From contig NZ_JAQZAK010000001.1 of the NCBI RefSeq assembly GCF_028737265.1, forward strand, positions 620,001 to 684,000: a DNA stretch of 64,000 nucleotides. The letters run 5' to 3'. Under the pieces are notes generated by a model, which saw nothing but the letters and a program-made list of their open reading frames with translations, did no database searches and was not told the origin of the DNA. The stretch comes from Actinomycetospora callitridis (GTDB lineage Bacteria; Actinomycetota; Actinomycetes; Mycobacteriales; Pseudonocardiaceae). The position numbers and the translations under genes were made by a program. Shown one piece after another: positions 53,487 through 62,400 of this stretch. Positions within the stretch are counted from its first letter, which is position 1. Every line of letters begins with the position of its first letter.

Positions 53487-54227
53487 TCACGTCCAGAAGC
53501 CGTCGCGCTCGTAGAGCCGCCGGAGCTCGACGATGTGGTCGCGCATCGCCTCCTCGGCCTCGCCCGCCCGCCCCTGCGCGACGTGCTCCGCGATCTCGCG
53601 GTGGCAGGCGTCGACCTTGTCCCACTCGCCCGGCTCGACACCGGAGCGGCGCAGGCGGGTGCGCAGCACGTCGTTCACCGGCTGGCCCATGAGCGTCAGC
53701 ATCAGGTTGCCCGTGGCCATGAGCAGCGTCGTGTGGAAGTCGAGGTGCCCGACGAAGCCGCTCGGGTCCCGGTCGTCGCGCCGGGCCGCGGCCGCGGTGC
53801 GCACGGCCTCGACGGTCTCGGCGTCGGCCCGCTGGGCGGCCAGGCGCGCGGCCGCGGGCTCCAGGAGCAGGCGGGCCTCGAGCAGGTCGCTGACGTGCAG
53901 CTGCGGGGTCATCACGAGCACGCCGAGGGCGCTGCCCACGTCCTCGACGACGCGTGCGGGGTCGGGCTCGCTGACGAACGTGCCGCCCTGGACGCCGCGG
54001 TGGGTCTCGACGAGGTGCTGGCTGGACAGCACCCGCAGCGCCTCGCGCGCCGTGCTGCGGCTGACCCCGAACGCCCGCCCGAGCTCGGCCTCGTTCGGCA
54101 GCCGGGTGCCGGACGGCAGGGTGCCGGCGAGGATCTGGGTGCGCAGCTCGTCGGCGACCTGTCGGTAGGCGGGACGGACGCGCTGCACACGCAGGTGTGC
54201 GACCGGAGCGGGCGGCTGCGGGGGCAC
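53487..54227 (-). CDS. GntR/FadR-type transcriptional regulator
   Basis: This 246-aa protein has an N-terminal winged helix (YRQVADELRTQILAGTLPSG, LPNEAELGRAFGVSRSTARE ALRVL) and a FadR-type all-helical FCD effector domain with LLEARLLLEP and HLDFHTTLLMATGN, where His residues usually hold a metal. GTG 54227 follows TACGCT by six bases, so the mRNA is probably leaderless. The 17-bp operator 37 bases upstream suggests autoregulation and control of the divergent catabolic operon. Confidence 0.9.
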   Translation of the reverse strand: MPPQPPAPVAHLRVQRVRPAYRQVADELRTQILAGTLPSGTRLPNEAELGRAFGVSRSTAREALRVLSSQHLVETHRGVQGGTFVSEPDPARVVEDVGSALGVLVMTPQLHVSDLLEARLLLEPAAARLAAQRADAETVEAVRTAAAARRDDRDPSGFVGHLDFHTTLLMATGNLMLTLMGQPVNDVLRTRLRRSGVEPGEWDKVDACHREIAEHVAQGRAGEAEEAMRDHIVELRRLYERDGFWT

Positions 54228-54254
54228 GGGAGGAGCGTAGACCGTCGCCGACGC

Positions 54255-54283
54255 TTGTGGCAGATACGTCAGACGTTTAGCGT
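54255..54283 (+). promoter_or_regulatory. Promoter of the maoC operon
   Basis: TTGTGG, a 17-base spacer and TAGCGT, then eight bases to the ATG at 54292, predict a leaderless transcript. The GntR operator fills the spacer. Confidence 0.65.
54264..54280. promoter_or_regulatory. GntR operator, copy 1
   Basis: ATACGTCAGACGTTTAG contains the symmetric core ACGTC-A-GACGT. The whole 17-mer recurs exactly, inverted, at 58808-58824. Confidence 0.75.
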
Positions 54284-54291
54284 CCCCGGGC

Positions 54292-60257: not shown

Positions 60258-61323
60258 CCCCGCCGACCCCGTGGGCGGACGACGGGTGCGGGCGGGGGTC
60301 TTCCTCACCCATCAGCAGCCGCCGGGCCGCGATCCCCTCGTCGCCCTCGACGAGCAGCTCGGCCTCGTGCGCACCGCTCGAGACGCGGGGATGGACTCGG
60401 TCTTCGCCGGCCAGCACCACCTCGCCGAGTCGATGGCGCACATCCAGCCGCTGCCGTGGCTCGCGCGGCTGGCCGCCGAGGCGGGCGACATGACCGTCGG
60501 CACCGGGATCCACCTGCTCGCCCTGCACAACCCCGTCGACACCGCCGAGGCCTACGCCGGCCTCGACGTCGTGTGCGGCGGCCGGTCGGTGCTCGGGGTC
60601 GGGCTCGGCTACCGGCAGGTCGAGTACGACGCCTTCGGTGTCCCGCCCGAGCAGAAGGTCCGGCGGTTCACCGAGAACCTGCGGATCGTCGAGGCGCTCT
60701 GGCGCGGCGAGGCCGTGTCGGCCGACCTGCCCTGGACGCGCCTCGACGGCGTGCGCACGACGTTCCGCCCCGTGGCCCGGCCATCCCCACCGATGAGACC
60801 GCCGATCTGGATGGCGGCCAACTCCGACGGCGCGGTGCGGCGGGCGGCCCGTCTCGCCGACACGTGGATGATCAATCCGCACGCCACCCGGGCCACCGTC
60901 GCCCGGCAGCTGGAGCTGTTCCGGGCCGAGCGGGAGGGCGCCGGGCGGGGCCCGGTCGACGAGCTCCCGCTGATCCGGGAGGTGTTCTGCGCCCCCACGC
61001 GCGAGCAGGCCCTCGAGCAGGCCATGCCGTACCTGGCGCGGAAGTACGAGGTCTACGCCGACTGGGGCCAGGACCGTGTCATGCCCGGGACGGAGTCGTT
61101 CCGGGTCGGTTACGACGACCTCTCCCGCGATCGTTTCGTGGTGGGGTCTCCGGAGGACTGCACCGCGGCACTCCTCCCGTGGCGCGACGAGCTCGGCGTC
61201 GACCACTTCGTGTTCCGCACCGACTGGGCCGGCATGCCGGTCGAGGCGGCGCGGACCTCGCTCGACCTCCTCGCCCGCGAGGTGGTCCCGGCGCTGCGCG
61301 CGCTCCCCCTCCCGGTTCCCTGA
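60250..61323 (+). CDS. LLM-class (luciferase-like) flavin-dependent oxidoreductase
   Basis: This 357-aa TIM-barrel protein has VFAGQHHLAESMAHIQPLPW, TGIHLLALHNPVDTAEAYAG and VLGVGLGYRQVEYDAFG, typical of bacterial luciferase-like monooxygenases or F420-dependent reductases. Cofactor (FMN or F420) cannot be decided. It could work with or after the RutA-family enzyme encoded next, 24 bases on. Confidence 0.88.
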   Translation: MADPADPVGGRRVRAGVFLTHQQPPGRDPLVALDEQLGLVRTARDAGMDSVFAGQHHLAESMAHIQPLPWLARLAAEAGDMTVGTGIHLLALHNPVDTAEAYAGLDVVCGGRSVLGVGLGYRQVEYDAFGVPPEQKVRRFTENLRIVEALWRGEAVSADLPWTRLDGVRTTFRPVARPSPPMRPPIWMAANSDGAVRRAARLADTWMINPHATRATVARQLELFRAEREGAGRGPVDELPLIREVFCAPTREQALEQAMPYLARKYEVYADWGQDRVMPGTESFRVGYDDLSRDRFVVGSPEDCTAALLPWRDELGVDHFVFRTDWAGMPVEAARTSLDLLAREVVPALRALPLPVP

Positions 61324-61347
61324 CCCCGCAGGAAAGAGAGCTCCCTC

Positions 61348-62400
61348 GTGGACTTCGGCGTCTTCATCCCGATCGGCAACAACGGCTGGCTCATCTCGGA
61401 GAACTCCCCGCAGTACATGCCGACCTGGGAGCTCAACAAGAACGTGGTGCAGGAGGCCGAGCGCCAGGGCTTCGCGTTCGCGCTCTCGATGATCAAGCTG
61501 CGCGGGTTCGGCGGGAAGACCGAGTTCTGGGACCACAACCTCGAGTCGTTCACGCTGATGGCGGGCCTCGCGGCGGTCACCGACCGGATCAAGCTCTACG
61601 CCTCGACCGCGGTGCTGACGCTGCCGCCGGCCCTCGTCGCGCGGATGGCGTCGACGATCGACCAGATCGCGCCCGGCCGCTTCGGCGTCAACATCGTCTC
61701 GGGCTGGGCCAAGGGCGAGTACGAGCAGATGGGCCTGTGGCCCGGCGACGACTACTTCGGCTACCGCTACGACTACTCCACGGAGTACGTGAAGGTCCTG
61801 CGCGACCTGTGGGAGACCGGACGCTGCGACCTCGACGGTCAGTACTTCCAGATGGACGACTGCGTGCTCTCCCCGCAGCCCTCGGGCAAGGTCGACATCG
61901 TCTGCGCCGGGCAGTCGGAGCGCGGGATGAAGTTCTGCGCCGAGTACGGCGACTACAACTTCATCCTCTCGCCCGGGGTGAACAACCCGGAGGTCTACCG
62001 GGAGCCCACCGAGCGCCTGGCCTCCTTCGCCAAGGAGTCCGGCCGCGACGTCCGCTCGCTGCCGCTGTTCATGGCGATCATGGCCGAGACGGACGAGGAG
62101 GCCCACGCGAAGTGGCGCTCCTACAACGAGGGCGCCGACGCCGGAGCGCTCGGCTACATGGCCGACGAGGGCAACGCGGACACGACCGCCGACGGGTCGG
62201 GCACCGCGCGGACGATCAACCTCCCCGAGGGCGCGGTCAACTTCAACATGGCCACCCTCGTCGGCTCCTACGAGTCGGTCGCGCGACAGGTCGACGAGGT
62301 CGCCAAGATGCCCGGCGTGCAGGGGATGATGTTCACCTTCGACGACTTCGAGCAGGGCGTGCACGACTTCGGCACGCGCGTGAAGCCCCTGCTCGGATAG
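61348..62400 (+). CDS. rutA: RutA-family flavin monooxygenase (pyrimidine ring-opening type)
   Basis: This 350-aa LLM enzyme is very close to E. coli RutA by eye: VFIPIGNNGWLIS, SMIKLRGFGGKTEFWDHNLE, LWPGDDYF, CAGQSERGMKF, LVGSYESVARQVDEV and FTFDDFEQG. RutA opens uracil between N3 and C4 using reduced FMN. The other Rut proteins (B, C, D, E, F, G) are not in the window, and the flavin reductase RutF is missing too, so either it borrows a reductase or the substrate is different. GTG 61348 follows AGGAAAGAG. Confidence 0.88.
   Translation: MDFGVFIPIGNNGWLISENSPQYMPTWELNKNVVQEAERQGFAFALSMIKLRGFGGKTEFWDHNLESFTLMAGLAAVTDRIKLYASTAVLTLPPALVARMASTIDQIAPGRFGVNIVSGWAKGEYEQMGLWPGDDYFGYRYDYSTEYVKVLRDLWETGRCDLDGQYFQMDDCVLSPQPSGKVDIVCAGQSERGMKFCAEYGDYNFILSPGVNNPEVYREPTERLASFAKESGRDVRSLPLFMAIMAETDEEAHAKWRSYNEGADAGALGYMADEGNADTTADGSGTARTINLPEGAVNFNMATLVGSYESVARQVDEVAKMPGVQGMMFTFDDFEQGVHDFGTRVKPLLG

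What the first reader, a model, noticed from the sequence alone, without database searches (positions are those of the whole stretch)
53487..62400. Undescribed catabolic regulon joining RutA-type ring opening, an AtzEG-like amidase and CoA-ester chemistry
Seen: a GntR/FadR regulator followed by MaoC, CaiB, acyl-CoA dehydrogenase, a 73-aa helical protein, an amidase with full triad, PrpD, an LLM enzyme and a RutA-family monooxygenase, almost all overlapping. Known: RutA opens pyrimidine rings, AtzEG-type amidases hydrolyse biuret-like compounds, and CaiB, acyl-CoA dehydrogenase and MaoC form beta-oxidation-like routes. Inference: an N-heterocycle or cyclic imide is opened, deaminated and finished as a CoA ester. 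None of RutB-G is present, so it is not the known uracil pathway.
Basis: partly seen in the sequence, partly recalled or inferred. Interest (0 to 1): 0.75.

Follow-up and report, generated by a model that had tools for sequence, protein, structure and literature searches.

The report
Imide-opening regulon merging two pathways
In two genera of actinobacteria a conserved gene cluster joins a close relative of the oxygen-using enzyme that opens uracil in E. coli to genes like those of bacterial itaconate breakdown, and it is predicted to degrade a still unidentified ring-shaped nitrogen compound; one species lacks that enzyme and has a different, probably ring-opening enzyme pair beside the cluster, so the predicted step can be tested directly.

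Summary
The nine genes are real, complete and where stated. The cluster recurs in rearranged order in Actinomycetospora and Pseudonocardia: CaiB, ACAD, amidase, PrpD, LLM and RutA together in 13 of 17 and 13 of 15 loci. The palindrome ACGTCWGACGT occurs three times in the 6.08-Mb genome; two copies lie here, beside gntR and behind the amidase gene, and a like site lies behind the amidase in 21 of 27 loci, whether prpD or rutA follows. Both halves thus look like one regulon. RutA next to this amidase clade also occurs in Alphaproteobacteria; uracil-operon RutAs form one clade nested among amidase-linked ones. The CoA half has the gene content of the itaconate/methylsuccinate cluster. Pseudonocardia acidicola lacks RutA and has caprolactamase-like HyuAB beside the cluster. 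Best reading: a cyclic imide or amide is opened, de-amidated and degraded as a branched dicarboxylate. Open or against: no activity was tested, the substrate is unknown, two congeners lack the amidase, this cluster lacks the Ccl lyase, most genes are below family cut-offs, and the small protein was not shown to be AtzG.

The parts
53487..54227 (-). FadR-type GntR regulator with FCD ligand domain, divergent from the operon (start 54227 preferred over 54293)
   Evidence: Pfam FCD 79.1 bits, GntR 66.6; start by codon-position caller; divergent in all 29 of 32 loci in which it was found
54266..54276 (.). predicted operator 1, ACGTCAGACGT palindrome between gntR and maoC
   Evidence: 1 of 3 exact sites in 6.08 Mb; like sites upstream of gntR in 21 of 25 cluster loci
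54292..54819 (+). MaoC hydratase, itaconyl/mesaconyl-CoA hydratase-like (RipB/Ich is its best model, below cut-off)
   Evidence: NF038241 179.8 bits against 340; nearest solved structure 8hgn beta-methylmalyl-CoA dehydratase
54816..56045 (+). CaiB-type class III CoA-transferase, dicarboxylate type by similarity
   Evidence: PF02515 407 bits; best NCBIfam models succinate-glutarate and mesaconate CoA-transferase, both below cut-off
56045..57208 (+). acyl-CoA dehydrogenase
   Evidence: Pfam ACAD domains; 71% identical to the one in the Rhodococcus CaiB/MaoC cluster
57205..57426 (+). 73-aa helical protein, probable amidase partner
   Evidence: fused to the amidase N-terminus in 7 of 14 congener amidase rows, one of them cut by a contig end; two helices predicted; no match to AtzG
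57423..58811 (+). amidase of a RutA-linked clade, AtzE relative
   Evidence: PF01425 328.7 bits; one clade with RutA-adjacent amidases, SH-aLRT 92
58812..58822 (.). predicted operator 2, ACGTCTGACGT directly behind the amidase stop codon
   Evidence: 1 of 3 exact sites in 6.08 Mb; like sites within 75 bp of the amidase stop in 21 of 27 loci
58866..60257 (+). MmgE/PrpD-family protein, predicted dicarboxylate isomerase
   Evidence: PF03972 and PF19305; carboxylate-binding positions H93, D96, H107, H158, K208, K274 present; nearest solved structure is iminodisuccinate epimerase
60250..61323 (+). LLM-class oxidoreductase (start 60250 or 60286)
   Evidence: PF00296 185 bits; a 61% identical LLM lies in a CaiB/PrpD cluster, L191, in which no RutA or amidase was called within 16 kb
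61348..62400 (+). RutA, predicted flavin-dependent imide/amide ring-opening monooxygenase
   Evidence: TIGR03612 578.3 bits against cut-off 498.3; 491 bits to E. coli RutA structures

Best explanation
The cluster encodes a RutA-family flavin monooxygenase and an amidase that would together open a cyclic imide or amide and remove its nitrogen, and a CaiB, acyl-CoA dehydrogenase, MaoC and PrpD set that is predicted to degrade the resulting branched dicarboxylic acid as a CoA ester. Proposed order. (1) RutA with reduced FMN and O2 attacks a ring carbonyl next to an NH, as it does at the -CO-NH-CO- part of uracil, and leaves an acid with a primary amide (inferred). (2) The amidase, with the small helical protein as partner, releases ammonia and leaves a 2-substituted succinate of the methylsuccinate/itaconate kind (inferred). 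(3) PrpD interconverts its stereoisomers (predicted from the family). (4) CaiB makes the CoA ester, the dehydrogenase introduces a double bond, MaoC hydrates it, and a Ccl-type lyase would split it to acetyl-CoA and pyruvate; that lyase gene is in the cluster in some relatives but not here (gene content shown, function inferred). (5) The GntR protein, whose FCD domain probably senses an acid intermediate, would control both transcription units through the two ACGTCWGACGT sites (sites shown, binding inferred). HyuAB, a caprolactamase-type lactam hydrolase by similarity, would do the RutA step in Pseudonocardia acidicola and in Rhodococcus.
For: Unity: a RutA orthologue (88-100% identical) is in 17 of 18 genomes of the genus, own included, and in 0 of 43 other family and order genomes; the PrpD orthologue is in 16 of 18. 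Six genes together in 13 of 17 Actinomycetospora and 13 of 15 Pseudonocardia loci, in two different orders. An amidase-anchored scan of the genome collection (exact peptide patterns, so close relatives only) gave 40 loci; 34 of 40 hold RutA and 27 of 40 CaiB at 50% identity or more. Regulation: ACGTCWGACGT has 3 sites in G000, 2 of them here; 11 of 18 sites over six genomes of the genus lie in this cluster. With up to 2 mismatches a site lies behind the amidase stop in 21 of 27 loci and upstream of gntR in 21 of 25; 0.8% of random 75-bp windows have one. Ring opener: RutA over cut-off; in 42 of 42 cluster or amidase-linked RutAs Thr105 is Ser, and Asp stands at position 292 in 40 of 42, unlike 8 classic RutAs. 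Swap: P. acidicola L077 has the cluster without RutA (genome best 42%) and HyuA 79-80% and HyuB 88% identical to the Rhodococcus pair beside it; of 30 genomes searched, the other 29 have no HyuA above 53% identity at E 1e-150; HyuA's best model is caprolactamase CapA, 580 bits, cut-off 1000. Rhodococcus L208 links HyuAB and an amidase to CaiB 66%, ACAD 71% and MaoC 54% identical to the window's. CoA half: MaoC best model RipB/Ich; a Ccl-like lyase beside gntR in 10 of 45 locus ids, i.e. 8 loci, two fetched twice, best model RipC/Ccl (L079); Azospirillum L207 has lyase, MaoC, PrpD, ACAD, CaiB, GntR, a small gene, an amidase and TRAP genes side by side. Published enzymology of that gene set.
Against: No substrate or activity is known. 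RutA's residues differ little from uracil RutA (N134, W139, L65, F224 kept), so uracil is not excluded; Ser105 is also in 14 of 17 RutAs with neither partner. PrpD has no Tyr at the place of the published second catalytic residue Tyr148 (His153-Asp154 stand there), and the published methylsuccinate isomerases are 96% from Pseudomonadota, so its exact reaction may differ. Two congeners (L049, L053) have the cluster without the amidase, and G001 (L054) has only gntR, small domain, amidase and rutA. The Ccl-type lyase is not found in G000 at E 1e-40. No flavin reductase is in the cluster and no RutF in the genome. The LLM and the alpha/beta hydrolase of some relatives have no role in the scheme. 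CaiB, MaoC, amidase, lyase and HyuA are below the curated cut-offs of the named families. The site is missing in both places in L080 and L081, behind the amidase in L066, L067, L075 and L083, and upstream of gntR in L073 and L084. The swap is one case. The loci are related, so the counts are not independent.
Confidence: 0.55

Rival explanations
1. It is a pyrimidine (uracil or thymine) route in which the amidase replaces RutB on ureidoacrylate, and the CoA genes finish the C3 or C4 acid.
For: RutA passes the uracil RutA cut-off with the FMN and O2 site residues mostly conserved. Proteobacterial RutA-amidase loci also carry RutF-like reductases or a 'malonic semialdehyde reductase', as in Rut. 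AtzE hydrolyses 1-carboxybiuret, a linear urea-like amide (passages, PMC6219798).
Against: The transporter of some relatives is best matched by the aromatic-acid/H+ symporters (212 bits, cut-off 418.6), not by a nucleobase permease; the O2-site Thr105 is Ser and position 292 is Asp; the caprolactamase-like swap and the itaconate-type gene set have no place in pyrimidine breakdown as described.
Confidence: 0.15
2. It degrades a pyridine carboxylate such as citrazinate (from isonicotinate): RutA and amidase give cis-aconitate, PrpD decarboxylates it to itaconate, and CaiB and MaoC degrade itaconate.
For: PrpD is related to cis-aconitate decarboxylases (118.5-125.7 bits); the acid-type transporter in relatives; MaoC and lyase look like Ich and Ccl. 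The isonicotinate pathway itself is recalled, not read.
Against: PrpD is nearer to iminodisuccinate epimerase (155 bits) and its family in this gene set is an isomerase without activity on aconitates; no molybdenum hydroxylase is among the cluster's Pfam matches; the acyl-CoA dehydrogenase would be idle; a search for papers holding isonicotinic acid, citrazinic acid and degradation found 0.
Confidence: 0.1
3. Two separate functions, nitrogen salvage by RutA plus amidase and dicarboxylate use by the CoA set, were brought under one regulator without sharing intermediates.
For: Each half occurs without the other: RutA plus amidase without the CoA half in Alphaproteobacteria and in G001; MaoC, CaiB, PrpD, ACAD and lyase without RutA in 10 of 20 neighbourhoods read.
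Against: An amidase travels with the CoA set even where RutA is absent (L207, L208, L188, L189, L194), and P. acidicola has a second kind of ring opener where RutA is missing. Both argue for a shared intermediate.
Confidence: 0.1

Closest known systems
Rut pyrimidine operon (rutABCDEFG)
   Same: RutA above the TIGR03612 cut-off; 61% identical to enterobacterial RutA; most active-site residues the same
   Different: no RutB or RutF at cut-off in the genome; amidase neighbour; GntR instead of RutR; Ser105 and Asp292; CoA half
Itaconate/methylsuccinate cluster ich-mcd-mmgE-ict-ccl (PMC12290011, PMC9875883)
   Same: MaoC, ACAD, PrpD and CaiB, and in some relatives the Ccl-like lyase, are the same kinds of gene
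   Different: MaoC and lyase below the cut-offs of RipB/Ich and RipC/Ccl; FadR-type regulator; ring opener and amidase in the cluster; lyase missing here; no Tyr at the published isomerase's second catalytic place
AtzEG 1-carboxybiuret hydrolase
   Same: amidase-signature enzyme with a small helical protein before it, here sometimes fused
   Different: below the AtzE cut-off, AtzE falls outside its clade; small protein not detectably AtzG
Caprolactamase/hydantoinase-like HyuAB clusters of Rhodococcus (NC_023144, NZ_CP101468)
   Same: GntR, MaoC, CaiB and an amidase in one place, in NZ_CP101468 also ACAD and PrpD
   Different: ring opener is HyuAB, not RutA; the amidase is of another clade

Membership tests
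Rut uracil operon | RutA over the curated cut-off | tested here: met
   578.3 against 498.3 bits
Rut uracil operon | RutB (ureidoacrylate amidohydrolase) | tested here: not met
   window genome best 37.3 bits against 377.95; over cut-off in 1 of 19 genomes searched
Rut uracil operon | RutF flavin reductase | tested here: not met
   best 79.7 bits against 254.75; 0 of 3 genomes over the cut-off
Rut uracil operon | O2-site Thr105 and Asn134 | tested here: not met
   Asn134 kept, but Thr105 is Ser in 29 of 29 cluster RutAs; Thr in 8 of 8 classic; roles of the two residues from passages of PMC10005588
Rut uracil operon | opens uracil | not testable with these tools
   needs enzyme assay
Itaconate/methylsuccinate cluster | MaoC of the RipB/Ich family | tested here: not met
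   best model but 179.8 bits against 340
Itaconate/methylsuccinate cluster | MmgE/PrpD protein with the six carboxylate-binding positions | tested here: met
   H93, D96 (Glu in the published enzyme), H107, H158, K208, K274; mapped by motif and spacing, the published sequence itself was not at hand
Itaconate/methylsuccinate cluster | second catalytic Tyr of the methylsuccinate isomerase (Tyr148) | tested here: not met
   His153-Asp154 at that place in the window and no Tyr in 145-175; mapped by spacing only
Itaconate/methylsuccinate cluster | Ccl-type lyase in the cluster | tested here: not met
   absent in the window's cluster and at E 1e-40 in its genome; present in 10 of 45 related locus ids
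Itaconate/methylsuccinate cluster | activity on methylsuccinate or itaconate | not testable with these tools
   needs enzyme assay
AtzEG | AtzE family score | tested here: not met
   293.5 against 425.75 bits; AtzE outside the RutA-linked clade
AtzEG | amidase-signature Lys, Ser, Ser triad (motif recalled) | tested here: met
   K76, S150 and S151, S174 invariant in 14 of 14 sequences
AtzEG | AtzG subunit | tested here: inconclusive
   no match by hhalign against the single AtzG sequence or by Foldseek; but same place and fusion to the amidase in 7 of 14 rows
FadR-type GntR regulators | GntR and FCD domains | tested here: met
   66.6 and 79.1 bits, both over cut-off

The most novel reading that the evidence does not exclude
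RutA did not arise for uracil: it is by origin half of a general O2-driven imide-opening pair, RutA plus an amidase, from which the E. coli uracil operon descended by exchanging the amidase for RutB. In Actinomycetospora and Pseudonocardia this pair was coupled to an itaconate-type CoA pathway and does without ATP what caprolactamase-type HyuAB enzymes do with ATP (ATP use recalled), opening cyclic imides of branched dicarboxylic acids, a route for which my literature searches found no description.
Probability: 0.33. Interest if true: 0.78.

Novelty: new variant of a known kind. Interest (0 to 1): 0.62.

Why it matters
RutA is a model for flavin-N5-oxygen chemistry, and the review passages read here describe it for uracil and thymine only. 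A second, perhaps older setting with an amidase partner and a different end product would show what the enzyme family can open and give a ready set of variants (Ser105/Asp292 against Thr105) to test. The natural swap of an oxygenase for a HyuAB-type hydrolase at the same place in a pathway is directly testable. It could also help explain why methylsuccinate genes are widespread in soil bacteria, a question raised in PMC12290011 (abstract): substituted succinates might arise from cyclic imides. The open question 'what is the substrate' can be settled with a handful of commercial imides.

Tried and rejected
Small protein as AtzG: profile comparison with AtzG of pADP-1 gave no match; the predicted model (pLDDT 79.9, two helices) had no PDB match with E below 3. 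Left as probable partner by place and fusion.

Literature: ten searches of open-licence PMC listed no paper that by title and abstract start describes a RutA-amidase-CaiB cluster. Judged from listings (one search showed 25 of 33); passages were read in five papers only. PMC5806882, which names both RutA and AtzE, was not opened. Subscription papers and preprints were not searched.

Isonicotinate route: considered for PrpD as cis-aconitate decarboxylase; no support beyond family resemblance.

A HpcH/HpaI match next to the cluster was first seen in L053 and set aside when L050's 578-aa neighbour turned out to be a peptidase; it came back as a Ccl-like gene once searched with the Rhodococcus lyase.

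Third site of the genome (C18:284546): different flanks, and no cluster-type gene matched within the 11 kb read around it. G002's C6, C11 and C54:168956 sites share a longer flank with it and look like another element.

Flanking genes of two Pseudonocardia clusters (POT transporter, TerD, PspA, NlpC/P60, AI-2E, SSF and others) differ between loci and seem to mark the cluster's ends.

RutA tree rows: 81 hits of 250 aa or more, 67 after identical ones were dropped; for the careful tree 14 more were taken out, 3 outlying or partial rows and 11 near-copies. L137 was labelled classic from a RutD neighbour only. The gene caller did poorly on lower-GC loci (L192, L201; several amidases), so absences there are weak.
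Full report
THE OBSERVATION. The window lies in a 6.08-Mb actinobacterial genome (G000) whose nearest named relative in the scan is Actinomycetospora chibensis (amidase 93%, RutA 99% identical). Between the end of the atp operon and a serA-like gene stand a divergent GntR/FCD regulator and maoC, caiB, an acyl-CoA dehydrogenase, a 73-aa gene, an amidase, a MmgE/PrpD gene, an LLM gene and rutA, the last eight on the + strand. 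Among the NCBIfam scores shown only RutA passes its curated cut-off (TIGR03612, 578.3 against 498.3). It is 61% identical to enterobacterial RutA and its best solved relatives are the E. coli RutA structures. RutB and RutF are not found in the genome at their cut-offs.

CONSERVATION. A RutA orthologue (88-100%) is in 17 of 18 genomes of the genus, own genome included, and in none of 43 further genomes of the family and order (best 34%). In 396 genomes of the phylum only the own genome and one 52% relative pass E 1e-90. A scan of the genome collection with the amidase alignment (two exact peptide patterns) gave 40 loci. By tblastn (50% identity, GntR 35%) 34 of the 40 hold RutA, 27 CaiB, 27 ACAD, 26 PrpD, 26 LLM, 22 MaoC and 27 GntR. 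Of the six loci without RutA, two end at a contig end and their genomes have RutA elsewhere (90% and 95%), one (L077) has only a 42% relative in its genome, and three (L097-L099) have none at E 1e-40. Taking 17 Actinomycetospora loci (window included) and 15 Pseudonocardia loci, all of CaiB, ACAD, amidase, PrpD, LLM and RutA are present in 13 of 17 and 13 of 15. The exceptions are L041 and L073 (short contigs), L049 and L053 (no amidase in the cluster), L054 (only GntR, small domain, amidase and RutA) and L077 (no RutA). MaoC is missing in four of the 15 Pseudonocardia loci. The order differs: amidase-PrpD-LLM-RutA in the window type and in Pseudonocardia, RutA-PrpD-LLM behind the amidase or dehydrogenase in the other Actinomycetospora type. 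Five of the 17 Actinomycetospora and nine of the 15 Pseudonocardia loci also have an aromatic-acid-symporter-like MFS gene, and some of the second type an alpha/beta hydrolase. In 7 of 14 congener amidase rows (one row cut by a contig end) the small protein is fused to the amidase's N-terminus.

ONE REGULON. The palindrome ACGTCWGACGT occurs three times in the whole genome. Two copies are in this cluster, at 54266-54276 between gntR and maoC and at 58812-58822 just behind the amidase stop codon. Over six genomes of the genus, own included, 11 of 18 sites are in the cluster; the reversed control pattern had 0 or 1 site per genome and strand. Allowing two mismatches to AACGTCNGACGTT, a site lies within 75 bp behind the amidase stop in 21 of 27 loci and upstream of gntR in 21 of 25, whereas 0.8% of random 75-bp windows contain one (the gntR window is 350 bp, and the loci are related, so the counts are not independent). 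The second site stays behind the amidase whether prpD or rutA follows. That is hard to explain except as a control site of the second transcription unit. In window-wide terms the two-mismatch pattern is not enriched (5 matches, 8.3 expected by chance); the case rests on exact sites and on place. That GntR binds there is inferred from the site's place beside gntR.

THE RING-OPENING HALF. RutA beside an amidase of this same clade recurs in Rhizobiales, Rhodobacterales-type bacteria, Acetobacteraceae, Methylobacterium, Ilumatobacter and Goekera, there without close CaiB, ACAD, PrpD or LLM but mostly with transporters, further amidases or isochorismatase-like hydrolases and in several loci RutE- or RutF-like genes. 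The amidases of the cluster and of these loci form one clade (SH-aLRT 92, quick tree), apart from the HyuAB-linked, Azospirillum and AtzE amidases. In the RutA tree the uracil-operon RutAs are one clade (bootstrap 100), the window cluster another (100), and the latter is sister to the remaining 28 RutAs of the inner group (that group 99/96, the two together 99/99), with amidase-linked rows branching below the classic clade. Amidase linkage is therefore the cheaper ancestral state in this sample. The sample was drawn with amidase and RutA queries, outgroup branches are long, and other RutAs have neither partner, so this is an inference. Rhizobium sp. SG_E_25_P2 has both kinds, a 67% RutA in an amidase locus and a 56% RutA with true RutB. 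Residues: positions Asn134, Trp139, Leu65 and Phe224 are kept in all cluster, amidase-linked and classic rows; Thr105 of the classic O2 site is Ser in 29 of 29 cluster and 13 of 13 amidase-linked rows, Thr in 8 of 8 classic ones; position 292 is Asp in 29 of 29 and 11 of 13 but V, E, Q or L in the classic rows (residue roles from passages of PMC10005588 and PMC7662398). Ser105 is not diagnostic alone: 14 of 17 other RutAs have it too.

THE CoA HALF. [quoted passage not shown] PMC9875883: passages). Here MaoC's best NCBIfam model is RipB/Ich (179.8, cut-off 340) and CaiB's are succinate-glutarate and mesaconate CoA-transferase (solved relatives). PrpD's nearest solved structure is iminodisuccinate epimerase, and the positions named in the paper as binding the dicarboxylate are present, though not the Tyr named as second catalytic residue. 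The last gene of the set, a Ccl-like lyase whose best model is RipC/Ccl (161.6, cut-off 375, tested on L079), sits beside gntR in 10 of 45 locus ids (8 different loci, of which L084 and L085 read alike) of Actinomycetospora and Pseudonocardia, but not in the window, and not in its genome at E 1e-40. CaiB relatives (55-68% identical) pass E 1e-140 in 31 of 394 genomes of the class, own included; of 20 neighbourhoods read, 10 have MaoC, CaiB, PrpD, ACAD and the lyase, none with RutA called. Azospirillum argentinense has lyase, MaoC, PrpD, ACAD, CaiB, GntR, a 69-aa gene, an amidase and a dicarboxylate TRAP transporter side by side.

THE SWAP. In Rhodococcus plasmids and three further actinobacterial genomes (L188, L189, L194) the CoA set stands next to HyuA, HyuB and an amidase of another clade. 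HyuA's best model is caprolactamase alpha (580 bits, cut-off 1000). Pseudonocardia acidicola (L077, L222) has the window-type cluster without RutA, and beside it, one gene apart from gntR, HyuA (79-80%) and HyuB (88%) of the Rhodococcus kind with a Rhodococcus-type GntR. Of 30 genomes searched with HyuA, only this one had a match above 53% identity; three others had 42-53% relatives at E 1e-150 or better, and no other of 45 locus ids had HyuA near the cluster. So where RutA is missing from an otherwise complete cluster, a lactam-type opener stands in. This is one case in one species, but it is the most direct hint at RutA's role here.

MECHANISM. RutA cleaves uracil between N3 and C4 (passage, PMC10005588), in a -CO-NH-CO- group; a five- or six-membered cyclic imide offers the same group. 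Cleavage would leave a primary amide, a fitting substrate for the amidase next door, and the product of an imide of a substituted succinate would be what the itaconate/methylsuccinate set handles. Steps shown: gene content, co-conservation, sites, family and residue matches. Steps inferred: every reaction, the substrate and the regulator's ligand. The LLM and the alpha/beta hydrolase of relatives are unexplained, and no flavin reductase is in the cluster.

VERDICT. A real, conserved catabolic cluster, very likely under joint control, best described as a new variant: a RutA-amidase pair coupled to an itaconate-type CoA pathway. Ten searches of the open-licence library listed no description of it (judged from listings).

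Noticed in passing
window 48355-50109 and 50115-51155: ATP synthase alpha has a long acidic Ser/Gly/Asp-rich C-terminal tail and the gamma subunit acidic low-complexity inserts; both recur with variation in those congeners whose atp genes were read (among L060-L064, L091). Function unknown.
   Followed up: partly
window 62456-63040 (-): A 194-aa open frame opposite to and behind rutA without any Pfam or NCBIfam match, with 44-92% relatives at the same or a nearby place in congeners.
   Followed up: no
L055:9323-10411, L056:9237-10322: A second RutA-like gene (46-48% identical) in several Actinomycetospora genomes; in G001 and G015 a weak isochorismatase-like match lies next to it.
   Followed up: no
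L128, L088, L089, L093, L094, L095, L129: Alphaproteobacterial GntR - RutA - two amidases cluster, mostly with an isochorismatase gene, a divergent sugar-type ABC transporter, MFS, another amidase and RutF- or RutE-like genes: perhaps an undescribed Rut-like pathway of its own.
   Followed up: partly
L195 (Pfam run), similar layouts in L196, L197, L200: The same CaiB, MaoC, PrpD, ACAD genes interleaved with a thiolase-like, a RidA-like, a FAS1-dehydratase-like and another LLM gene.
   Followed up: no
L097, L098: Sister amidases of the RutA-linked clade without RutA, next to M32 carboxypeptidases and aspartoacylase-like genes in Acidimicrobiales and Jiangella.
   Followed up: no
L211:5546, L212:5186, L213:5107, L214:5456: Other ACGTCTGACGT sites share a longer flank (GGATT.CCT.ACGTCTGACGT.AG), perhaps a different repeated control element.
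   Followed up: no
L061, L064: A gene of 463-471 aa lies between the atp operon's end and gntR in A. succinea and A. lutea; the A. succinea copy (read as L042) has DUF222 and HNH matches.
   Followed up: no
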